Of a stretch of DNA of 64,000 nucleotides, positions 4,730-37,720 are shown in pieces. The stretch spans positions 5,704,001 to 5,768,000 of the forward strand of contig NZ_CP030050.1 in the NCBI RefSeq assembly GCF_015291705.1. Reading direction: 5' to 3'. Origin of the DNA: Bradyrhizobium arachidis. Lineage in GTDB: Bacteria; Pseudomonadota; Alphaproteobacteria; Rhizobiales; Xanthobacteraceae. The position numbers and the translations under genes were made by a program. Below the pieces are notes generated by a model. The model was not told where the DNA came from and did no database searches. It saw only the letters and a list, made by a program, of their open reading frames with translations. Position 1 is the first letter of the stretch, and each line of letters starts with the position of its first letter.

Positions 4730-5368
4730 TCAGCTTGGCCAGGGCGTGTTGCGGATGCGCGTGCACGCGTTCGGCTTGCGGAAGGAGGGATCGTGATCCT
4801 CGATGTAGTCGAAGTTCACCGTCCCGAACGTGGTCTGCGGCTTCTTCAGCGCTGAGCAGGTCTGCACCTTCAGGAACTCGTTCTTGAAATCGCCGCGCGG
4901 AAACGCTGATATCACCTGCTCGCGCTGCTCCGGCGTATACTCGTCGAACCCAACGCCGACGACGTCCACCAGCACTCCCGCGTTGGTGAGCGCGATCTCC
5001 GGCCGCATATATTGCGGAATGCCGGGAGTGGTGTGCAGCGCGATCGCCTCCCACACCAGATCGGCTTGCGCCTCGCCGATGTCGCGCGCCCGGAGGAAGT
5101 CACGCGCGGCATCCGCACCGTCGACCTCGAACCGCTTGGTCTGCGTATGGTAGTGATCGACCAGGCCGAGATCGTGGAACAGCGCCGCGACATAGAGCAG
5201 CTCGGCATCGAACTTCAGCTTTTGACGCTGTCCCTTCATCGCGCCGAACACGTAGACGCGAACGGAATGGTTGAACAGCATCTCGTCCTCGTAACTGCGC
5301 ACCAGTTCTGTTGCCTCGCGCGCCAGCTTGCTGTCGGGAATCTTCACGCCGGAGATCACGCTCGTCAT
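4730..5368 (-). CDS. HD-domain hydrolase (cyanamide-hydratase-like group)
   Basis: A 212-residue soluble protein with metal-ligand motifs of the HD superfamily: FNHSVRVYVFG (first His), AALFHDLGLVDHY (the HD pair), then EAIALHTTPGI (later His). The pattern resembles the HD-type cyanamide hydratase/phosphohydrolase group. The ATG at 5368 has AGGAG upstream at good spacing; a TTG at 5392 is the alternative. It follows the AhpD-like gene by 50 bases on the same strand and both diverge from a MocR-type regulator, suggesting one regulated unit. The substrate is unknown. Confidence 0.75.
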   Translation of the reverse strand: MTSVISGVKIPDSKLAREATELVRSYEDEMLFNHSVRVYVFGAMKGQRQKLKFDAELLYVAALFHDLGLVDHYHTQTKRFEVDGADAARDFLRARDIGEAQADLVWEAIALHTTPGIPQYMRPEIALTNAGVLVDVVGVGFDEYTPEQREQVISAFPRGDFKNEFLKVQTCSALKKPQTTFGTVNFDYIEDHDPSFRKPNACTRIRNTPWPS

Positions 5369-5418
5369 CTTCAAGCTCCTGCTTTGCAACAAGGTCGATC
5401 GATTGCGCTCGCGGCGCG

Positions 5419-5880
5419 TCAGGCTGCCTTTTCCGATACGGCCCGCGGCGTCTTGCGGAAGCTGATCGCCATGCGGTTGTACGTGTTCATCAGGCCGATC
5501 GCGATGGTGAGATCGACGAGCTCGCGCTCCTCGAACACCGTCCGGGCGGCCTCATAGGCCTGATCCGGCACGCCGGTATCCGCAACGCGCGTCACCGTCT
5601 CGGCCCATGCCAGAGCCGCGCGCTCGCGCGCGTCGAAGAGATCACCGGCTTCCGGCCACGCCTGCAGCAGGGCGAGCTTTTCGATCTTCAGCCCGCTCTT
5701 GAGCAGATCGCGCATGTGCAGGTCGAGGCAGTAGGCGCAGTTGTTGATCTGCGATACCCGCAGATAGACGAGGTTGAACAACGCCGCGGGAAGATCGCTC
5801 TGCATGATGTAGCCGTAGACGCCGCCCAACGCTTTCACGCCTGCCGGTGCGATGCGGTCGTAGTCGAGGCGCCCAGTCAT
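5419..5880 (-). CDS. carboxymuconolactone decarboxylase / AhpD-like protein
   Basis: A 153-residue protein with the AhpD signature CAYCLDLHMRD, i.e. CxxC followed by His, in a helical fold. Members act as alkylhydroperoxidase-type reductases or as carboxymuconolactone decarboxylases; the presence of both cysteines favours a redox role. The later segment (ERELVDLTIAIGLMNTYNRM) matches the family C-terminus. It lies first in a two-gene unit with the HD hydrolase and is divergent from a regulator 119 bases away, which likely controls it. Confidence 0.85.
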   Translation of the reverse strand: MTGRLDYDRIAPAGVKALGGVYGYIMQSDLPAALFNLVYLRVSQINNCAYCLDLHMRDLLKSGLKIEKLALLQAWPEAGDLFDARERAALAWAETVTRVADTGVPDQAYEAARTVFEERELVDLTIAIGLMNTYNRMAISFRKTPRAVSEKAA

Positions 5881-5952
5881 TGTCTTGCTCCTTGATGATC
5901 ATTCGTGAGGGTCTGGCCCTTTTTCTCCCTCCCTAGGTGCCCCTGCCGTAGT

Positions 5953-5994
5953 CCAAGGAAAAGCACCAAGAACGCACAAAAATCGTGTACCAAG
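5953..5994 (+). promoter_or_regulatory. possible regulator binding site (three CCAAG direct repeats)
   Basis: The pentamer CCAAG occurs at 5953-5957, 5966-5970 and 5990-5994, all in the same orientation, in the short gap between the divergent AhpD-like and MocR genes. MocR/PdxR regulators usually bind direct repeats beside their own gene, so this could be the operator. The repeat is short and could be chance. Confidence 0.25.
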
Positions 5995-5998
5995 GGGC

Positions 5999-7405
5999 AT
6001 GACCAAACCGCTGCGGCTGGAGCTCGATCGGTCCGCCAGGACGCCGTTGGCAGAGCAGATCCACAACGGGATCAGGGCCGCCATCGAGAACGGCGTGCTC
6101 GCACCGGGCGCCCGTCTGCCCTCCTGGCAGGACCTCGCCGCCCAGCTTGGCGTCGCGCGCGGCACCGTGCGTTCGGCCTATGAAAAGCTCTCCTCCGCCC
6201 AGCTGATCGTCGCCGGCCGCGCGACCGGAACGCATGTCGCCGATCGGCTCTCCTTCCCCGTTCGGCAGGACAAGGCCCCGGACCCCGGCTCGTTCATGGA
6301 AATGTACCGCGAGCTCACCGCGGGGCCGGCCTTCTTCCAGATGGGCGTGCCCGGCCAGGCAACCTTGCCTGCAACGCTGCTGGCGAGGATCCGCGCACAG
6401 GCGGTTCGCGTCGAAATGAGCGCGCCGGCGATCTATCCGGATCCGCGCGGCGAGCTGGAGTTGCGGCGCGAGATCGCGGCCTACCTTGCGCTGGCACGCG
6501 GAATCGCGTGCGCGCCGTCCCAGATCGTCATCACCGGCGGTTTCAGCGGCGGCCTTGGTCTCGCGCTCCGGGTGCTCGGCCTCGAGCAGGAGAAGGTGTG
6601 GATGGAGGACCCGGGCTTCCCGTTCACCCGCCACGGCCTCGAGCTGGCGCGATTATCGGTCGTGCCGATCCCGGTCGATGCGGATGGCATCGACGTCACT
6701 TATGGGCTGCAACATGCCCCTGACGCTGCGCTGGCCGTCGTGACGCCAGGGCAGCAGGCGCCACTCGGATCGACGCTGTCGCTGGAAAGACGCGCGCGTC
6801 TGCTCGACTGGGCCGCACAGGGCAAGGCGTGGGTGATCGAGGACGACTATCTCAGCGAGCTCCAGCTCAAGGGCCGCGCCACGCCGGCGCTCGCCTCGCT
6901 CGACCGCGCCGGCCGCGTCATTCACATCGGCTCCTTCAGCAAGACCGTGACGCCGACGTTACGGCTCGGCTTTGTCGTTGCGCCCACAGCTCTCGCCTCG
7001 CGCTTTGCCGAAGCCGCAGCCTGCCTTGCGCCGGCGCCCGGGCCCGCGGTGCAGCTGGCGATGGCCGATTTCATCCGCGAGGGTCATTATCTGCGGCATC
7101 TTCGACGCACCAAGCGGGCCTACGCAGCGCAAGCCGATACGTTGCTGAAACTGCTCCGCGCCCGCACCGCCAATGTCGCACTTGCAGGATTGGCCGCAGT
7201 CCTGCGCCTGCCGAACGGAACATCCGACCTCTCCATCGCCAGGGAAGCGGCATCGTTCGGACTGGCGCCTACGCCGCTGTCGCTGTGGTATGCGTCCGAG
7301 GCATCGGCGCGGCCGGGACTGCTGCTGGGTATCGCCACATCTCCACAAAAGCGCATCGAGGCGTCCTGCGAGAAGCTATTCGAGATCATCGAACGCCAAG
7401 TATGA
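5999..7405 (+). CDS. MocR/PdxR-type GntR regulator with aminotransferase domain
   Basis: This 468-residue protein joins an N-terminal winged helix of the GntR family (about residues 10-80; PLAEQIHNGIRAAIENGVL, then LGVARGTVRSAYEKL) to a class I aminotransferase fold that binds PLP. The PLP lysine is visible in GSFSKTVTPTLRLGFV, and VIEDDYLSEL is the aspartate region contacting the cofactor pyridine. MocR proteins sense PLP or an amino-compound and regulate a divergent gene. Here the divergent unit encodes the AhpD-like and HD proteins rather than PLP-synthesis genes, so the ligand is not obvious. Confidence 0.85.
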   Translation: MTKPLRLELDRSARTPLAEQIHNGIRAAIENGVLAPGARLPSWQDLAAQLGVARGTVRSAYEKLSSAQLIVAGRATGTHVADRLSFPVRQDKAPDPGSFMEMYRELTAGPAFFQMGVPGQATLPATLLARIRAQAVRVEMSAPAIYPDPRGELELRREIAAYLALARGIACAPSQIVITGGFSGGLGLALRVLGLEQEKVWMEDPGFPFTRHGLELARLSVVPIPVDADGIDVTYGLQHAPDAALAVVTPGQQAPLGSTLSLERRARLLDWAAQGKAWVIEDDYLSELQLKGRATPALASLDRAGRVIHIGSFSKTVTPTLRLGFVVAPTALASRFAEAAACLAPAPGPAVQLAMADFIREGHYLRHLRRTKRAYAAQADTLLKLLRARTANVALAGLAAVLRLPNGTSDLSIAREAASFGLAPTPLSLWYASEASARPGLLLGIATSPQKRIEASCEKLFEIIERQV

Positions 7406-29016: not shown

Positions 29017-30042
29017 ATGAGCAGCGAGACGGCTTTGGCGGCGGGGCAGCGGGCGCGGGGCCTTGCACCCTTCCTGCGCTCGCAGATGCGCAACATCGCC
29101 CCGTTCCTGACGCTGATCTTCCTGTCCGCCTTCTTCGCCTTCGCAAGTCCCTCCTTCGCCACGCTCGACAATCTCGGCAACATCCTGACGCAGGTGTCAG
29201 TGACCGGCATCATCGCCGTCGGCCTCACCTTCGTGATCCTCTGCGCGGAGATCGACCTGTCGATCGCCAGCATCGCCAACGTCACGGGCATCGCGGTCGC
29301 CTACTTCACGCTGCAGGAGTCCTACGTCAACATCGCCAATATCCCCCTGCCCGGCGCGGTCGCGATCATCCTCTCGATCCTGCTCTGCGCATTGCTCGGC
29401 CTCGTCAATGCGCTGGGGCTGACCGTGATCGGTATCCCCTCCTTCATCATGACGCTGGCAATGATGCAGATCGCGGCCGGCATCTCGGCGCTGCTGGTGC
29501 GCGGCCAGATCGCCTACAAGGTGCCGAGCCTGATCACGACGCTCGGCTCGGGCTCGATCGGCGGCATCCCCTGGATCGTCATCGTCGCCGCCATCATGCT
29601 GCTCGGCGGCCACCTCGTGCTGACCTACACGCGCTTCGGCCGCTACGTCTACATGGTCGGCGGCAATCGCGAGGCTGCCGAATATGCCGGTCTCAACGTC
29701 AAGCTCATCCTAGGCGCCGTCATGGTGATCTCGGCGGTGTGCTCCGGCATCGGCGGCATGCTCGGCGTTGCCCATTTCGGCAGCGCGCAGCAGAACGAGT
29801 TCGACACGTACCTGCTCGACTCCATCGCTGCGGTCGTGGTCGGCGGCACCAGCCTGTTCGGCGGCCGCGGCGGCATCGGCAACACCATCGTCGGGCTTTT
29901 CGTTCTCGGAGTTCTCAATAACGGCCTCGACCACGTCAACATCGACAGCTTCTTGAAGATCCTGATCCGTGGCCTGATCCTGCTGGCGGCGCTGGTCATC
30001 AACGTCTATGCGCAGCGCTTGCGAGAAAAAACGGCGGAATAG
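29017..30042 (+). CDS. sugar ABC transporter permease (RbsC-like)
   Basis: A 341-residue inner-membrane permease of the BPD_transp_2 family with eight to ten hydrophobic segments. The family motif NREAAEYAGLNVKLILGAVM is the loop that contacts the ATPase, and VVGGTSLFGGRGGIGNTIVG is the conserved C-terminal motif. The ATG at 29017 has ACGGAG upstream; the frame stays open upstream but overlaps the ATPase gene. It is the last gene of the operon. The 244 bases that follow to 30286 hold nothing I recognise. Confidence 0.92.
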   Translation: MSSETALAAGQRARGLAPFLRSQMRNIAPFLTLIFLSAFFAFASPSFATLDNLGNILTQVSVTGIIAVGLTFVILCAEIDLSIASIANVTGIAVAYFTLQESYVNIANIPLPGAVAIILSILLCALLGLVNALGLTVIGIPSFIMTLAMMQIAAGISALLVRGQIAYKVPSLITTLGSGSIGGIPWIVIVAAIMLLGGHLVLTYTRFGRYVYMVGGNREAAEYAGLNVKLILGAVMVISAVCSGIGGMLGVAHFGSAQQNEFDTYLLDSIAAVVVGGTSLFGGRGGIGNTIVGLFVLGVLNNGLDHVNIDSFLKILIRGLILLAALVINVYAQRLREKTAE

Positions 30043-30286
30043 ACGGCCGCCCAAACAAAAGTACGAAAACAACCCCATGCACAGTACAAATCATTGCGGA
30101 ATTTGGCGCGGAGCGAGTCTGAGCCGACGCCGTGGCGACATTTGACTCGTCGGGCAAAACAGGAGCATGATGTCATCATCGGTCAAGCGCTCAAGCAGTG
30201 AGCCTAGACCGGCGGCAGCTCTTCCGTCGTGGCGACTTGTGACCTCATCCGCGCTTTCACGCCACACTCATTCCCAGGCGTTTGAA

Positions 30287-31087
30287 TCACGACTCAACAG
30301 TTAACCAGCCAAGCTCGAACAGCCGACGGACGACATGATCGTAGGGTTGGCTCTGCGTGATCTGCTCTTTGGTCATACCGAAATTCGAAATAGCGCCGCT
30401 CTCGATCAACTCACCGACGAACCAAAGAAAAACGGCATACATCTTTGGTCGATCCGTTTCGTTCAGCGGCCCGTTCTGCACGAGCTCGTAGAGCGATTGA
30501 AGTCGCAGACGATTTGCGTCGGGCAGCAGGTGGATAATGCGCTCGCGCGGGAGCGCAAACGTGGCCTGCACGTACGACGCGACCAGAAACAGTTTTTCGA
30601 AACCGAACTGTCTGACGACGGGAAGCAGTATTGCGTATAGTTGCCGCGCCTCCGGAGGCGCGGCGGCGATCAGTGCATCGTGCGGTTGCCTTTGCCCCGT
30701 CAGGACGGGCTCTGCCACCGCGATCACGTCGGTTGATCCGGCCGGCGGATCGCCATTGTGTTGGCGGATCATGGCCATCACAGAGATGAACATGGCCTGA
30801 TCCGGATTGAAGCCCAGGAAGCCGCCGCCGAAGCCGGGAGATATTCCAAGGGAGCCAAGCTGGAGGGCCACCTGGTCACGGATCACCTGATGTCGGCCGG
30901 CGGCATCGGCCCGTCGTCTCAAGTCCTCTGCCTGTGCGATGATCTCCACGGGCAGCTTTTGCCACGACCACCGCGCCAACAGGGCTGCATGGGCCACATT
31001 CTGGTGCATCCAGATGTCCCAGATTTTTCCTAGGAACCCCTGATATGGATTCTTCGGCTGGAAAAGCTTGCTGAGGATTCCGAAAAT
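30287..31087 (-). CDS. unrecognised helical protein, likely AUU start
   Basis: From the first ATG at 31009 the protein has 240 residues, but the coding-like frame runs 26 codons further (FGILSKLFQPKNPYQGFLGK) back to an ATT at 31087. That ATT has GGGAGG five bases upstream and no ATG, GTG or TTG lies in frame between the upstream stop and 31009. I therefore place the start at AUU, giving 266 residues. The protein looks mostly helical, with a Gly/Phe patch (GISPGFGGGFLGFNPDQAMF). It has no family I know. It is the last gene of the ankyrin-CHAT-EACC1 cassette, so a role as partner or effector is possible. Confidence 0.6.
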   Translation of the reverse strand: MFGILSKLFQPKNPYQGFLGKIWDIWMHQNVAHAALLARWSWQKLPVEIIAQAEDLRRRADAAGRHQVIRDQVALQLGSLGISPGFGGGFLGFNPDQAMFISVMAMIRQHNGDPPAGSTDVIAVAEPVLTGQRQPHDALIAAAPPEARQLYAILLPVVRQFGFEKLFLVASYVQATFALPRERIIHLLPDANRLRLQSLYELVQNGPLNETDRPKMYAVFLWFVGELIESGAISNFGMTKEQITQSQPYDHVVRRLFELGWLTVES

Positions 31088-31098
31088 GGGAGCCTCCC
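31085..31098 (-). promoter_or_regulatory. ribosome binding site GGGAGG with ATT start codon
   Basis: On the minus strand GGGAGG (31098-31093) is followed by five bases and ATT (31087-31085). An ATG pair further upstream (31103 and 31100) reads a different frame and lacks a good ribosome site. AUU starts are known from infC, where they make translation sensitive to IF3. Confidence 0.45.
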
Positions 31099-31144
31099 AT
31101 CATTGAAGTGCAATGAGCGGCGGTGACCTTTGACTTTCGCGCTT

Positions 31145-31519
31145 TCAGTGCCTGCGGGGGGCTCGCAATTCCTTGTCGATCTCCTCCGGCGTAACGCTCT
31201 CCAGCGAGCGCGGCCTTCCGCCGATCTCGACCTTAATAGCGCGGATCAACGCCCCACCCTCGGTGACCATTTTGCGCAAGGCAGCAAGAAGCTTTGCTCC
31301 GGCTCCAACCGCGCCGGCCATGGCAGTCAGCAGGACCGCGAGATGGGCGACCGCGACGGGATCGAGATTTGCCTCCGAATCCACGGCCATGCCGTCGATC
31401 GCAACACCGCTTACATCCCCGAGGCTCGCGCGCGCCAACGCGGTGATCTCGTCTTCGTGTTTCGCGGCGATTTTCGGATCCTGGTCCCCGTTGATTTCGA
31501 CGTAAATCTGCAAACTCAT
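31145..31519 (-). CDS. EACC1-like small protein (conflict-system constant component)
   Basis: A 124-residue protein starting MSLQIYVEINGDQDPKIAAK, then a hydrophobic Ala/Gly-rich central helix (AHLAVLLTAMAGAVGAGAK, LLAALRKMV) and a strand-rich end (IRAIKVEIGGRPRSLE, VTPEEIDKEL). The pattern I.VE..GD.D.....L.. plus a Gly/Ala helix before a terminal strand pair resembles EACC1, described as a constant component of NTP-dependent conflict systems. This is judged by eye. It lies 15 bases after the CHAT gene and 57 bases before the last cassette gene. Confidence 0.5.
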   Translation of the reverse strand: MSLQIYVEINGDQDPKIAAKHEDEITALARASLGDVSGVAIDGMAVDSEANLDPVAVAHLAVLLTAMAGAVGAGAKLLAALRKMVTEGGALIRAIKVEIGGRPRSLESVTPEEIDKELRAPRRH

Positions 31520-31534
31520 CGCAACCTCCGTACG

Positions 31535-33124
31535 TTATGCTTTCATGCCAAATTGCACCGCCGTGAACGGGGCCCATTCGTACTTTTGCTGATGGAGAGG
31601 GTCCTTGTAGAGTTCCCGCGCTGCTCTTTGGATGCTTGTGGCGGCATCCGCACCATTGACCCAGGCGTCGTACACGAGGCCTGCCATCGACTTTGCGGCG
31701 CGGACCTTGGCATTCCAGAGCGATCCGATGACCTGGCGCGCCCCGGCGACGCGAAAGGCGGCCTGGAGTCCGAACAGATCGTCCCCGGGCCAAAATTGAA
31801 TTCCCATCCCGCCGACGGCCCGCTGCCCGGAGCAGCACGCGACGAGCACGACAAGATCGGCGGGAACGCGAGATCTGGAGATCATGTCTGCAGTCAGCCG
31901 TTCCGACCCCAGTTGCAGGAACGACTCTCCGGGGACATCGCCCTGTGCGGACGTGCCATGGCAAGCCAGCAGCAAGAAGGCGGCATGGTCCAGCTCACCG
32001 CCGGCCAGCATCCCTGCAAGTGTATTGCAGACGCCCGGCTCCGTGAGCCGATTGGCCGGAAGTCCGCGAGCCTCGTGCCTCGCAACGATTTCTTCGGCGA
32101 CGCCGTCAAATCCCCTGGTCGGTTGAGCGGTGGGATAATAGTCAATGCCCGCGGCAACCACGCCTTGCCCGTCGGTGACCGGTATACGACGATGGATGGC
32201 CCCGAGATTTGGGATCGTCGTCCAGGGATAACTTAAACCGAGACGACTTCCCCCGAACCTGAGCAAGCTGAAGGGAATCGCATGAAGCGACCGATGCGGG
32301 AGGATGAACAGCTTCCGGGCGTTCGCCAGTCGCGACGTCACCAGGGAGGGTAACAGCACTGGAAGCAAGACATCGAGCAAATCAGCCTCTTCGGACGTGA
32401 AGCTCCAGCCTCCGATTCCGCCGTTTCGAAGATGGGCCGAGAACGACTCCAGAATGCGCAAAGCCTCTGGATTGACCGTCACCGGCACCGACTGCAACGA
32501 ATTTCGCTCGACGGTCGCGACCAGAAGCCGGCCGGCTCCCAACCAGGTGTAGACAATGGCGAGCTCGCCAATCGCCAGCGCCTTCTGAACCAGCTTCAAA
32601 TCCAACGGCGGTTCACCTGGCAGCGCGGGCCGCTGGTTCTCAGCCGCCTTCAGCGCGCACGCCAGACGTCCAGCGGCCAAGGCGGCCGAGGTCGCGCTCT
32701 CGAAGATGCGAATGCGATCCAGCATCGAGGTTGCCCGGAGAATTGGATCCGTTGTTCGTTCACGATGCTGCCGGGCCAGCTCGATCGCGCGCTGCGTCAG
32801 ATCGTAGGCGCGATCCGGCTGGGGCTCCTTGTCCTTCAAGGCGGCGTCCGCCTCGATCGTGAGCGAGAGCGCCGTAACGTTCGGCGCCGTCGTCTCGTCT
32901 ACCAGCTCGCGCGCCTGCACGGCAAAGCATCGCGCCTTGGCAGGCTCATCATCGAGCCAGGTGTCGGACAATTCCACCAGGGAAGCGGCTTTGATAGTGC
33001 GCTGTGGCAGCGCGGCCGCTTGCGCTACGAGCCCTTCGGCCGCCGTACGCCTGTCGCGCCCCGACACGCCCGACAGGCGCTGCATTCGAACCTCAGTCAG
33101 GAGCTGGTTGACCGCCAGGAGCAC
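31535..33124 (-). CDS. CHAT-domain caspase-like protease with helical-repeat N-terminus
   Basis: This 529-residue protein has an Ala/Leu-rich N-terminal half of TPR-like helices (about 25-200; RAYDLTQRAIELARQHRERT). The CHAT peptidase domain begins near 185. Its dyad is visible: His389 in FLLLACHGTSAQG and Cys430 in LVVLVACCSGQRAVGG, with LFILPHRSLHAIPFSLLRF and FRVAGARQVIGSLWNAK as conserved flanks. CHAT proteases act as effectors that cleave host or partner proteins in defence and cell death systems. Translation seems coupled to the ankyrin gene two bases upstream, using a GTG at 33124; an ATG at 33085 is possible. Confidence 0.85.
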   Translation of the reverse strand: MLLAVNQLLTEVRMQRLSGVSGRDRRTAAEGLVAQAAALPQRTIKAASLVELSDTWLDDEPAKARCFAVQARELVDETTAPNVTALSLTIEADAALKDKEPQPDRAYDLTQRAIELARQHRERTTDPILRATSMLDRIRIFESATSAALAAGRLACALKAAENQRPALPGEPPLDLKLVQKALAIGELAIVYTWLGAGRLLVATVERNSLQSVPVTVNPEALRILESFSAHLRNGGIGGWSFTSEEADLLDVLLPVLLPSLVTSRLANARKLFILPHRSLHAIPFSLLRFGGSRLGLSYPWTTIPNLGAIHRRIPVTDGQGVVAAGIDYYPTAQPTRGFDGVAEEIVARHEARGLPANRLTEPGVCNTLAGMLAGGELDHAAFLLLACHGTSAQGDVPGESFLQLGSERLTADMISRSRVPADLVVLVACCSGQRAVGGMGIQFWPGDDLFGLQAAFRVAGARQVIGSLWNAKVRAAKSMAGLVYDAWVNGADAATSIQRAARELYKDPLHQQKYEWAPFTAVQFGMKA

Positions 33125-33128
33125 GCCA

Positions 33129-34367
33129 CTACTTCCCTTGGGTCTGCAGTTTATGATCTACAATGAGGCGGGCATAACGATCCGCCTCGCTCGGGTTGCC
33201 GAGGTTGGCCTTGTCGACCGGGCCATAGGCATTCTTCAAGCCGAAGTATAACCGGTAGAAAAGCAGCCTGAGCTTCAGGATGTTGCCGGCACGCTGCACC
33301 AGCTGAGGGCCATTTCCGGCATCGCTCATCATCGATGCCATTATCTCGTTGAAGATCGTGCCGGGGGCTGGCGGCTCCTTGTAACCTGCCTGTCTCAGGG
33401 TGGCTTCCGCGTCCTTGAATGTCGCGATCGCCGCCAGTTGATTGCGGACTTGCAGCTGGATTTCACCCAGCTGGATCAAATGAGACGCTCTCGAAACAGT
33501 GGATGGAGGTGCCGAGGCGACCGCCGCCCGCGCGCGCTCTTGCCGCTGCTCGACATTGCCGGACGCAACGTGGAGGCACGCTGCCGCGTTATCGGCAGCG
33601 TCCCGGGCTTCCGCCCAAAGGCCGGCCCTTTCGAAGATGGCCTGCGCCGCCTTGTATTGAGCCGCGGCGCGACCCGGCTGCTCCAGCACGGTATCGAGGA
33701 TGAAGGCGGAGAGCCGAGAACATTCAGCCGCTTGCGCGAGAGGCGACGCCTGCCACCCGCCAGCCGGCACCGACTGACCCGCAAGAGTCAAAAAGTCGGC
33801 TTCGATCTGCTTCAATTCCACGATTGTCGTCTCGTCCACCCGCATCGACGACACTCCAAACGCTCCCGCAGCAGCTGACGGTAGACTCCAGCTCATTGAG
33901 GCGAACGTGACTTTCAGGCTCGCATGCCGAAGCCGCGCATCCGCATCGAGGAACGCATTAATTTGGCGCATGGCATCTGAGCCGGCACTCGGCCTTCGTC
34001 GAAGGCGACTGAAGACCGCGCGATAATCATTGAGCGCGGCCATGTCCGACGCGGTTCTTCCGTTCGCGTCACGCAGATCCGGATCGGCGCCATGCTCGAG
34101 CAATACCTCCACGGCGGCGAGTTGCCCCGCCGTCGCGGCGGACATGAGCGCGGTGACGCCCTGATCGCCGACAGAGTTCGGATCGGCTCCCCGCAACAGC
34201 ATCAGACGGAGAACATCGACTTGCCCACGTTGAGCCAAGAGATTGAGCAATGTCGGCCCGCCCAAATAAATGTTTGGCGGCATTCCTCTGTCCAGCGCCT
34301 CGGCACCGACCGCCACATCGCCCTTGATAGCCGCTCCGGCAACTCTCAGGATCTCTTCTTCTGTCAT
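33129..34367 (-). CDS. ankyrin-repeat/TPR protein
   Basis: A 412-residue soluble protein. Residues about 30-125 form ankyrin repeats: TLLNLLAQRGQVDVLRLMLL then RGADPN, and TALMSAATAGQLAAVEVLLE then HGADPDLRDANGRTASDMA. The rest is helical with TPR-like pairs (about 220-330; AAQYKAAQAIFERAGLWAEA, RASHLIQLGEIQLQV). No catalytic motif was seen, so it is probably a scaffold or sensor for the CHAT protease encoded next. The ATG at 34367 has GGTGAG upstream; the frame extends to 34382. First gene of the cassette. Confidence 0.75.
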   Translation of the reverse strand: MTEEEILRVAGAAIKGDVAVGAEALDRGMPPNIYLGGPTLLNLLAQRGQVDVLRLMLLRGADPNSVGDQGVTALMSAATAGQLAAVEVLLEHGADPDLRDANGRTASDMAALNDYRAVFSRLRRRPSAGSDAMRQINAFLDADARLRHASLKVTFASMSWSLPSAAAGAFGVSSMRVDETTIVELKQIEADFLTLAGQSVPAGGWQASPLAQAAECSRLSAFILDTVLEQPGRAAAQYKAAQAIFERAGLWAEARDAADNAAACLHVASGNVEQRQERARAAVASAPPSTVSRASHLIQLGEIQLQVRNQLAAIATFKDAEATLRQAGYKEPPAPGTIFNEIMASMMSDAGNGPQLVQRAGNILKLRLLFYRLYFGLKNAYGPVDKANLGNPSEADRYARLIVDHKLQTQGK

Positions 34368-34853
34368 GCGCTTGCTCACCAACTTCGCAGATTGAAGCGA
34401 GCCGGACCAGCCATACGCGATTGGCTCGTCGACGTTGGACCAGCCTTGGAAGCTCCATCAACGGCAAGAAGGTGTGGCCGGCGCTGCGGGCCACGTCCCG
34501 TCGCCTATTGTGGTTGGCATACGCGCCCCCCAAAAGTCCAAGCACGTCGAGGATCGAGAGGGTTCGCTGAAGCCGAAGGTTCTTACTCCCGGAAAGGCTT
34601 CAACAAGCATTTCCTGCGGCGCAACCCGAGGGTGAATCTAGCATGGCATACTCCGTCGTGACAGCCGCCGCCCGCTCCGCGCATCTACAACTTAAGCGCG
34701 TTTCCGCCCGTAGCGTGTGAACCAATTCACCACGAACATGCGATCTTCAGCCCGCCGAAATCGTCGCTCTTATGGCTAGCATCTTCGGCATATGACGGCA
34801 TCACCCGAACGGGTGATGAGCGACGAAGACTGCAAGGAAGTGTCTCGGCCTTC
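34368..34853. other. intergenic region upstream of the CHAT cassette, with a palindrome
   Basis: About 490 bases with no convincing gene. It must contain the cassette promoter (minus strand). A perfect eight-base inverted repeat, CATCACCC (34799-34806) and GGGTGATG (34811-34818), with a four-base loop, could be an operator or hairpin. It has no T-tract on the minus strand side and lies over 400 bases from the cassette start. Confidence 0.4.
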
Positions 34854-34893
34854 GCCCTTCGAGGGCCGCTGAAGAAGCGGCCACCTCAGGGTG
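34854..34893. repeat. intergenic hairpin repeat overlapping the ABC ATPase stop codon
   Basis: An imperfect palindrome with core GGCCGCT/AGCGGCC and outer arms CCT/AGG. It ends in CCTCAGGGTGACGG, a phrase that resembles dispersed intergenic repeats of Bradyrhizobium and Rhodopseudomonas. The stop codon of the last peptide-ABC gene (34886-34888) lies inside it, so the element probably also acts as that operon's 3' hairpin. Copy number elsewhere in the genome cannot be seen. Confidence 0.4.
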
Positions 34894-35921
34894 ACGGTGA
34901 TAGAGAGACGCTCGCTGCACCGATCTCGTCTGCACGCCAGCACCTCACCGCATGCCCATCGGCGCGCGTTTCCAGCACCGGCCCCGGCTCGTGGCGGCAC
35001 ACATCTTCGGCATAACGACATCTCGGGCTGAAGGCGCATCCATTCGGCGGATTGAGCGGATTGGGAAGGTCGCCGCCGGTCGTCGCCAGCGGCGCATGGC
35101 GCAAGGGGTCGGGGATGGCTGATATCAGAGCCTGCGTATAGGGGTGCGCGGGACGTTCAAATATCTCGCGCCAGTCGCCGTTCTCGACGATGCGGCCGAG
35201 ATACATCACGGCGACGCGGTCGCTCATGTGCTCGACGACGCCGAGGTCGTGGCTGATCATGATGTAGGAGAGACCGAGCGTATCCTTCAATTCCAGGAGC
35301 AGATTGATGATCTGGGCGCGGATCGAGACGTCGAGCGCCGAGACCGGCTCGTCGCAGATGACGATCTTGGGATTGAGGATCAGCGCGCGCGCGATGCCGA
35401 TGCGCTGACGCTGGCCGCCGGAGAACTCGTGCGGATAGCGGTCGGCCTGCTCGGGCCGCAGGCCGACATGCCGCAGCATGGTCGCGACGCGGTCCTCGAT
35501 CTCGCTCTTTGCGGTCACGCCATGCACACGCAGGGGATCTTCGAGCGTGCGGCGAACGGTCTGGCGCGGGTTGAGCGAGGCGTAGGGATCCTGAAATACG
35601 ATCTGCACGATGCGGGCTAGCGCCTTGCGATCACCGGATGGCCTGCCGGTCACGACCTGCCCGTCCAGCACGATGCGGCCGCGCGTCGGCGTCAGCAGGC
35701 CCAGGATCGACAAGGCGACCGTCGACTTGCCCGAGCCGGACTCACCGACGAGGCCGAGACATTCGCCCCGCTTCAGCTTGAGATCGACCCCGTCGACGGC
35801 GCGCAGCAACCGCCGGCCGCGGCCCAGCAAGCCGCCGCCCATCGGAAAATGAACCGCAAGATCCTCGACGCTGAGGATGAGATCGTCGTCCACCCTGCCC
35901 TCACGCGATTTGTTCTTGGGC

Positions 35922-35929
<8 letters not shown>
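34886..35929 (-). CDS. peptide-type ABC transporter ATPase (DppF/OppF-like)
   Basis: A 347-residue ATPase with Walker A GLVGESGSGKSTVALSILGL, Q-loop VQIVFQDPYASLNPRQTV, signature FSGGQRQRIGIARAL and Walker B IVICDEPVSALD. The C-terminal oligopeptide extension (CAFSPRCRYAEDVCRHEP) with its cysteines is typical of Dpp/Opp ATPases and may carry an Fe-S cluster. Its ATG overlaps the stop of the DppD-like gene. Last gene of a five-gene importer. Confidence 0.9.
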
Positions 35930-36898
<969 letters not shown>

Positions 36899-36902
<4 letters not shown>

Positions 36903-37720
36903 GTCCGCCGGCTCCGCGATTGGGGATCGAGGATGTCGCGCAGGCCGTCGCCGAGCAAATTGAGGCCGAGCACGGTCAGGAAGATCGCAAGGCCCGGAAA
37001 GATCGAGAGCCACGGCGCCGTCGTGATCTGGTCGCGGGCATCAGAGAGCATGCTGCCCCAGCTCGGAAACGGCGGGCGGACGCCGAGGCCGAGGAACGAC
37101 AAGGCGGCTTCGGACAGGACTGCGCTGCCCATGCCGAGCGTGCCGATCACGACGATCGGCCCGAGCATGTTTGGCAGCAGCTGCGTGACCATGATGCGCA
37201 GATCGCCATAGCCGAGCACGGTCGCCGCCTGCACGTAGCCCTGGCTCCGCAGCGACAGCGCCGAGGCCCGCGCGATCCGGCAGGTGAAGGACCAGTTGGT
37301 CAGGCCGAGCGCGATCAGGAGGCTGGTCAGGCCGGGGCCGAGCACCGCCATGATGGCGAGCGCGAAGATCAGCGAGGGGATCGCGAGCATGAGGTTGGTG
37401 AGCGCGTTGACAAAATCGTCCCACCAGCCGCCCCAATATCCGGCGCTCAGGCCCAGGGCCACGCCGATCACGCTGTTGATGAGCTGCGAGACGATGCCGA
37501 CCGTCAGCGAGACGCGCGCGCCGTAGACGACACGAGAATAGATGTCGCGGCCCTGGTCGTCCGTGCCGAACCACCAGGTCCAGCTCGGGGGCTCTTCCGC
37601 GTTCATCAGATTGGCGTCGAGGACCGGATCGGTGTGCGCCAGCCAGGGCGCGAGCAGGCCGACGAGGATCGCGAGCGCGAACAGCGCGCCGCCGATGATG
37701 AGATTGGCGCGGAGCTTCAT
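36899..37720 (-). CDS. peptide-type ABC transporter permease (DppC-like)
   Basis: A 273-residue permease with six membrane segments. Residues near the N-terminus read WWFGTDDQGRDIYSRVVYGA, the DppC/OppC hallmark, and the EAA loop is AATVLGYGDLRIMVTQLLPN. The ATG at 37720 overlaps the DppB-like stop (37717); the longer frame to 38359 runs over that gene and is rejected. Confidence 0.9.

What the first reader, a model, noticed from the sequence alone, without database searches (positions are those of the whole stretch)
30287..34367. Candidate conflict cassette: ankyrin/TPR protein, CHAT protease, EACC1-like protein and an unknown helical protein
Four minus-strand genes with very short gaps encode a putative sensor or scaffold (ankyrin plus TPR), a CHAT protease with an intact His389/Cys430 pair, a 124-residue EACC1-like protein and a 266-residue protein of no known family. 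CHAT effectors with repeat-protein sensors and EACC1 components are known from predicted NTP-dependent conflict systems, but I do not know this four-part combination as a described system. No ATPase gene is present in the cassette, which makes it different from the classical versions. The EACC1 call is by eye, and the defence role is inference.
Basis: partly seen in the sequence, partly recalled or inferred. Interest (0 to 1): 0.85.

Follow-up and report, generated by a model that had tools for sequence, protein, structure and literature searches.

The report
CHAT-protease operon with new partner
A soil bacterium carries a compact four-gene operon built around a caspase-like protease, whose last gene belongs to an uncharacterised protein family seen beside such proteases in three different operon types, so it is probably a form of bacterial immunity that needs a laboratory test.

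Summary
Four minus-strand genes are confirmed at 30287-34367: an ankyrin protein (A), a CHAT protease (B), a 124-aa protein (C) and a 266-aa helical protein (D). The two other genomes with C (3 of 265 searched, own included) carry all four in the same order beside the same transporter genes. All evolve under purifying selection; CHAT's H389 and C430 are invariant in five homologues.

The cassette is a discrete insertion: one relative has about 130 bp where the window has 4.67 kb. Others carry unrelated cargo there, in one case the anti-phage gene PD-Lambda-4.

The EACC1 label is not supported: no Pfam hit and no significant profile match; only layout and a hydrophobic segment agree. AlphaFold suggests a ferredoxin-like fold for C. 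TPRs in A are not detected.

New result: D, without a significant family or structure match, sits beside CHAT in all five loci read, in three operon types: Ank-CHAT-C-D, CHAT-179aa-D and CHAT-lipase-D. D, not C, is the constant CHAT partner.

Best reading: an ATPase-free, CHAT-centred conflict operon, probably abortive anti-phage defence, in which A senses, CHAT is activated and D is its partner and likely substrate. The defence role and cleavage of D are inferred, not shown.

The parts
33129..34367 (-).
   Evidence: Pfam Ank_4 E 7e-13, Ank_2 3e-12; no TPR hit in residues 130-412; orthologues 71-73% identical, highest dN/dS of the four, 0.26-0.38
31535..33124 (-). Gene B, 529 aa: CHAT (caspase-like) protease, GTG start, H389/C430 dyad
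   Evidence: Pfam CHAT E 3e-26, residues 255-523; H389, G390, T391 and C430 invariant in 5 of 5 aligned homologues; profile of the five hits Csx29/TPR-CHAT chains in the PDB, best E 5e-5
31145..31519 (-). Gene C, 124 aa: predicted ferredoxin-like alpha/beta protein with a central small-residue hydrophobic stretch (residues 55-73); EACC1 label not supported by sequence
30287..31087 (-). Gene D, 266 aa from an ATT start: helical protein of no named family; core of about 190 aa shared with distant homologues, plus a C-terminal extension; constant CHAT partner, proposed substrate or effector
   Evidence: 20 proteins (own included) found in a word-based search of 5.8 billion; homologues beside CHAT in 3 operon types; AlphaFold2 pLDDT 80, residues 66-92 below 50; no PDB fold match at E below 0.001
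31088..31103 (-). Ribosome-binding region of D: ATGATGGGAGGCTCCC before the ATT start
   Evidence: Identical in L020 and L021
30180..34851 (.). Extent of the insertion relative to the empty site: cassette plus its edges, 4672 bp
   Evidence: Flanks conserved up to about 30179 and from about 34843-34935; 130 bp between them in G121 (L067); GC 0.614, only 1 of 119 sliding windows of that size is as low

Best explanation
The locus is a horizontally moved, ATPase-free, CHAT-protease-centred conflict operon. Most likely it acts by abortive infection: the ankyrin protein A binds an infection cue (inferred), which relieves or activates the CHAT protease B (inferred from the intact, conserved dyad). 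CHAT then cleaves its operon partner D (inferred), plausibly in the conserved but poorly ordered Gly-rich stretch at residues 66-92 that joins two helical parts, releasing a fragment that stops growth. C is a small, probably ferredoxin-like accessory whose place other D-containing operons fill with a lipase or a different small protein. Shown here: the gene set, its co-occurrence in three genomes, selection, the intact dyad, the insertion site and the CHAT-D association. Not shown: phage protection, protease activity, the trigger and cleavage of D.
For: All four genes are in the same order in L020 and L021, with protein identities to the window of A 71-73%, B 82-83%, C 84-85%, D 77-84%. C is present in 3 of 265 genus genomes, own included. 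D homologues have CHAT two genes upstream in 5 of 5 loci whose neighbourhood was read: the window, L020, L021, L019 and L084; the first three are close orthologues, so these are three independent types. Between types the D proteins match at E 4e-31 to 4e-45, while the CHAT domains share 27-37% identity over 43-225 residues. The catalytic His and Cys are invariant. The slot is empty in G121 and variable elsewhere, and holds PD-Lambda-4 in G008 (E 4e-248 for one piece, 5e-55 for the other). GC is low for the window. A CHAT-lipase-D operon exists (LCAT E 6e-16); phospholipases act as membrane-degrading effectors in CBASS defence (PMC13092281, passage seen). CHAT proteases are listed for Borvo and type III-E CRISPR defence (PMC10952713, one passage seen).
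Against: PADLOC has no specific model for any of the four or for the six L019 and L084 proteins. Most cargo at the slot elsewhere shows no defence match: of 81 slot ORFs of at least 90 aa scanned with PADLOC, the two PD-Lambda-4 pieces match strongly (10 scanned), and one hit each to PD-T4-2_B (E 4e-8) and mad2 (E 8e-6) appears among the other 71. No tRNA in the window and no repeat pair marking the cassette ends was recognised. A protease-substrate relation between B and D is inferred from gene pairing alone. The system is rare, so few independent contexts support it; D was found in only 3 of 391 family genomes.
Confidence: 0.6

Rival explanations
1. A divergent EACC1 (System 4) two-gene conflict system: C is a true but unrecognisable EACC1, CHAT stands in for the caspase, and A and D are added parts. 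C would sit in the membrane as sensor and trigger CHAT autoproteolysis.
For: C and EACC1 are of similar length, and both carry a central hydrophobic small-residue stretch at a similar place (19-residue hydropathy at least 1.6 in 11 of 11 C and 22 of 25 EACC1); both neighbour a caspase-superfamily protease. The best hhalign path falls in register, C 53-92 to EACC1 54-93.
Against: None of 11 C homologues hits PF19953. hhalign probability 0.8%; in the repeat the score of 15.1 is exceeded by at least 8 of 100 column-shuffled profiles, top 21.9. Gene order is reversed. C is not found by sequence in the other D-CHAT operons read. AlphaFold gives a ferredoxin-like fold, not one transmembrane helix, though on a shallow alignment.
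Confidence: 0.2
2. A stress or housekeeping regulatory protease operon (CHAT processing a cellular target) that happens to sit in a variable intergenic site and has nothing to do with phage.
For: The slot also holds what look like LysR-type regulators and metabolic genes, judged by eye from the ORFs. CHAT and ankyrin proteins also occur outside immunity (general knowledge). PADLOC finds nothing specific.
Against: Patchy distribution, 3 of 265 genus genomes; discrete insertion and low GC; the parallel CHAT-lipase-D operon looks like an effector set; PD-Lambda-4 in the same slot.
Confidence: 0.25
3. D, not CHAT, is the immunity or inhibitor part: a toxin-antitoxin-like set in which D holds CHAT inactive, and loss of D during infection frees the protease.
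For: D is the constant partner while the middle gene varies; it lies downstream of CHAT in all five loci read, as an inhibitor may.
Against: No direct evidence; the conserved, low-confidence stretch at 66-92 fits a cleavage or docking site as well.
Confidence: 0.2

Closest known systems
Craspase (type III-E CRISPR, Csx29 TPR-CHAT protease with Csx30 substrate)
   Same: Caspase-like CHAT protease with an operon partner; the profile of B and its relatives hits Csx29 chains in the PDB (best E 5e-5)
   Different: NCBIfam Csx29 match only 19.9 bits against a cut-off of 300; no array-like repeat family in 29900-35000 (the rest of the genome was not checked); D's profile matches no solved chain at E up to 1
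EACC1-caspase two-gene systems (Kaur et al. 2020, System 4, PMC7159879, passages seen)
   Same: Small protein with a central small-residue hydrophobic stretch next to a caspase-superfamily protease
   Different: No significant sequence match to EACC1; order reversed; extra genes A and D; CHAT rather than an N-terminal caspase with variable C-terminal domains
Borvo (CHAT-domain defence system; PMC10952713, one passage seen)
   Same: CHAT protease in phage defence
   Different: Four genes here; no PADLOC hit for B at E up to 1. That Borvo is a single gene and has a model in that library is recalled, not checked
SAVED-CHAT / caspase-like cascades of type III CRISPR (recalled, from no call)
   Same: Proteolytic signalling by CHAT proteases
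   Different: No SAVED or other cyclic-nucleotide-binding domain among the Pfam hits of the four proteins

Membership tests
CHAT protease family (PF12770) | CHAT domain above the Pfam cut-off | tested here: met
   92.8 bits against a cut-off of 24, residues 255-523
CHAT protease family (PF12770) | Catalytic His and Cys conserved | tested here: met
   H389 and C430 invariant in 5 of 5 aligned homologues; activity not tested
Ankyrin-repeat proteins | Ankyrin repeats above cut-off in A | tested here: met
   Five Pfam ankyrin models above their cut-offs
TPR proteins | TPR repeats in A | tested here: inconclusive
   No TPR model hit at E up to 10, whole protein or residues 130-412; divergent TPRs can escape Pfam
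EACC1 (PF19953) | Sequence profile match | tested here: not met
   0 of 11 members hit; hhalign probability 0.8%, below shuffled controls. The C alignment is shallow (Neff 1.6), so remote homology is not excluded
EACC1 (PF19953) | Single conserved hydrophobic helix with a small-residue patch between alpha/beta ends | tested here: inconclusive
   Hydrophobic small-residue segment present in 11 of 11, but modelled as a strand plus helix of a ferredoxin-like fold
EACC1 two-gene system | EACC1 gene 5' of the caspase gene (as described in PMC7159879) | tested here: not met
   C lies 3' of CHAT in the window, L020 and L021
Type III-E CRISPR Craspase (Csx29) | Csx29 above the family cut-off | tested here: not met
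   19.9 bits against 300
Known anti-phage system in PADLOC-DB | Specific match of the operon genes | tested here: not met
   For A three matches over the ankyrin region and one weak 'Effector' hit (E 0.003); none for B, C, D at E up to 1
Anti-phage defence system | Protection against phage | not testable with these tools
   Needs plaque assays
NTP-dependent conflict systems | NTPase component in the operon | tested here: not met
   No NTPase family among the Pfam hits of the four genes

The most novel reading that the evidence does not exclude
D founds a new family of dedicated CHAT-protease substrates or effectors. It defines an undescribed class of ATPase-free, CRISPR-free caspase-like immune operons in which the sensor part and the middle module (ferredoxin-like protein, LCAT-type lipase, 179-aa protein) are exchangeable while the CHAT-D pair stays fixed.
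Probability: 0.35. Interest if true: 0.78.

Novelty: new variant of a known kind. Interest (0 to 1): 0.62.

Why it matters
CHAT proteases are common in bacteria, but few have a known trigger or substrate (general knowledge). A small protein family that keeps the company of CHAT in three different operon types is a direct candidate for the substrate or regulator of such proteases, and can be tested with two purified proteins. If it is confirmed, it would add a simple protease-based immune module without ATPase or CRISPR guide, comparable in logic to animal caspase signalling.

Tried and rejected

Rows dropped: of 15 slot regions fetched, L066 and L074 were left out of the slot census because their sugar-transporter-side flank did not align simply. 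ORFs were called by my own rule (longest first, little overlap): 90 ORFs, of which the 81 of at least 90 aa (7 of them from G259 beyond the cassette) were scanned with PADLOC, 10 at E up to 0.01 and 71 at E up to 1e-5. A GC3 value for the flank 35922-36945 was computed out of frame and is ignored.
Full report
The four genes are real. On the minus strand the window encodes A (33129-34367, 412 aa), B (31535-33124, 529 aa), C (31145-31519, 124 aa) and D (30287-31087, 266 aa) with gaps of 4, 15 and 57 nt.

They are under selection and travel together. A search with C over 265 genomes of the genus finds it in 3 (own, G259, G135). In both others all four genes are present in the same order. Among the three genomes dN/dS is A 0.26-0.38, B 0.19-0.29, C 0.09-0.17, D 0.17-0.24: purifying selection on all, weakest on the proposed sensor. 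Database proteins from Bradyrhizobium sp. cf659 with neighbouring locus numbers match C and D (P0005, P0019), a further likely carrier whose DNA I did not read.

The locus is a discrete insertion. Fifteen regions carrying the flanking oligopeptide-type transporter gene were fetched; 13 gave a clear slot. In G121 the two flanks, matching the window up to 30179 and from about 34852, are 130 bp apart; in the other 12 the gap is 1.4 to 10.9 kb of DNA not matching the cassette. In G259 the cassette lies in the same slot, with 5.7 kb of other DNA on its sugar-transporter side; in G135 it lies beside the same oligopeptide-transporter genes, but the contig ends before the other flank is seen. Cassette DNA is 82-83% identical to the window's, flanks 89-91%. 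The cassette's GC is 0.614 against a mean of 0.644; only 1 of 119 sliding windows of that size is as low, and that one may overlap the cassette. In G008 the slot carries PD-Lambda-4, split over two overlapping ORFs (E 4e-248 and 5e-55), a published phage-defence gene (table in PMC10952713, passage seen). This is the main support for defence, and it is one slot of 13: among 71 further slot ORFs there are two weaker PADLOC hits, to PD-T4-2_B (E 4e-8) and mad2 (E 8e-6), which I did not follow.

D is the constant partner of CHAT. Only 20 proteins, own included, matched D in a search of 5.8 billion that needs shared short words, several at 36-47% identity over a core of about 190 residues. Distant homologues with readable neighbourhoods were found in two places. 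In a proteobacterial MAG (L019) D follows a CHAT protein of about 780 aa and a 179-aa protein. In another Bradyrhizobium, G168 (L084), it follows an 870-aa CHAT protein with weak TPR matches (under the Pfam cut-offs) and a 451-aa LCAT-type lipase (E 6e-16). Thus 5 of 5 loci whose neighbourhood was read, in three operon types, have CHAT two genes upstream of D. Between types the D cores share 32-39% identity (E 4e-31 to 4e-45) while CHAT domains share 27-37% over 43-225 residues. H389, G390, T391 and C430 are invariant in the five CHAT proteins aligned.

How it may work. AlphaFold2 models D as helical (pLDDT 80) with residues 66-92 below pLDDT 50, yet L77, G78, G81, I82 and P84 in that stretch are invariant across ten homologues. 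A conserved but poorly modelled link between helical parts is what a protease site or docking motif could look like; it could also be a part that folds only in a complex. With the Craspase precedent (CHAT cleaves the operon protein Csx30; PMC10952713 passage) I propose that infection is sensed by A, CHAT is switched on and D is cut to release a growth-stopping piece. Each of these steps is inference. The lipase in the sister operon suggests that membrane damage is one outcome there, also inference.

A small point on gene starts: D has no ATG, GTG or TTG in its first 26 codons. Its predicted start is ATT behind GGGAGG, identical in the three genomes, and distant relatives begin with Met where these read Ile.

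Verdict: observation mostly right, EACC1 and TPR labels not supported, defence plausible, and the interesting part is the CHAT-D pair. Nothing seen in four literature searches describes this set (listings capped at 20 in three of them). I rate it a new variant of CHAT-protease conflict systems.

Noticed in passing
L071:3965-7766 (genome G008): The same chromosomal slot holds a PD-Lambda-4 homologue split over two overlapping ORFs (PADLOC E 4e-248 and 5e-55).
   Followed up: partly
L084:9077-13752 (genome G168): CHAT protein with weak TPR matches, LCAT-type lipase and D homologue in one minus-strand operon; looks like a sister conflict system with a membrane-attacking effector.
   Followed up: partly
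L019:1055-4644 and 5136-6200: CHAT, 179-aa protein and D homologue in a proteobacterial MAG; a RelA/SpoT-domain gene lies next to them on the other strand.
   Followed up: partly
window 31085-31103: D appears to start at ATT; the upstream ATGATG is out of frame, while a relative (P0015) begins with MM some residues earlier, so it may have it in frame; its DNA was not seen.
   Followed up: partly
window 30179 / 34852 boundary: The intergenic site between a sugar-type and an oligopeptide-type ABC transporter (named by eye) is a variable cargo slot across Bradyrhizobium (130 bp to 10.9 kb in 13 genomes).
   Followed up: partly
L035:1426-1839: EACC1's published 'transmembrane helix' lies where C is modelled as a strand plus helix of a ferredoxin-like fold; EACC1 may share that fold instead of spanning a membrane. 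Not modelled here.
   Followed up: no
G000:C1:9474503-9475525 (L001): A second, better-scoring CHAT gene in the window's own genome (883-aa open frame).
   Followed up: no
L084:2099-3259: A Fic-family gene (E 2e-18) lies about 6 kb from the CHAT-lipase-D operon of G168.
   Followed up: no
NZ_LT559118.1: A record of 11.85 Mb is listed among plasmids; by size it is a chromosome.
   Followed up: no
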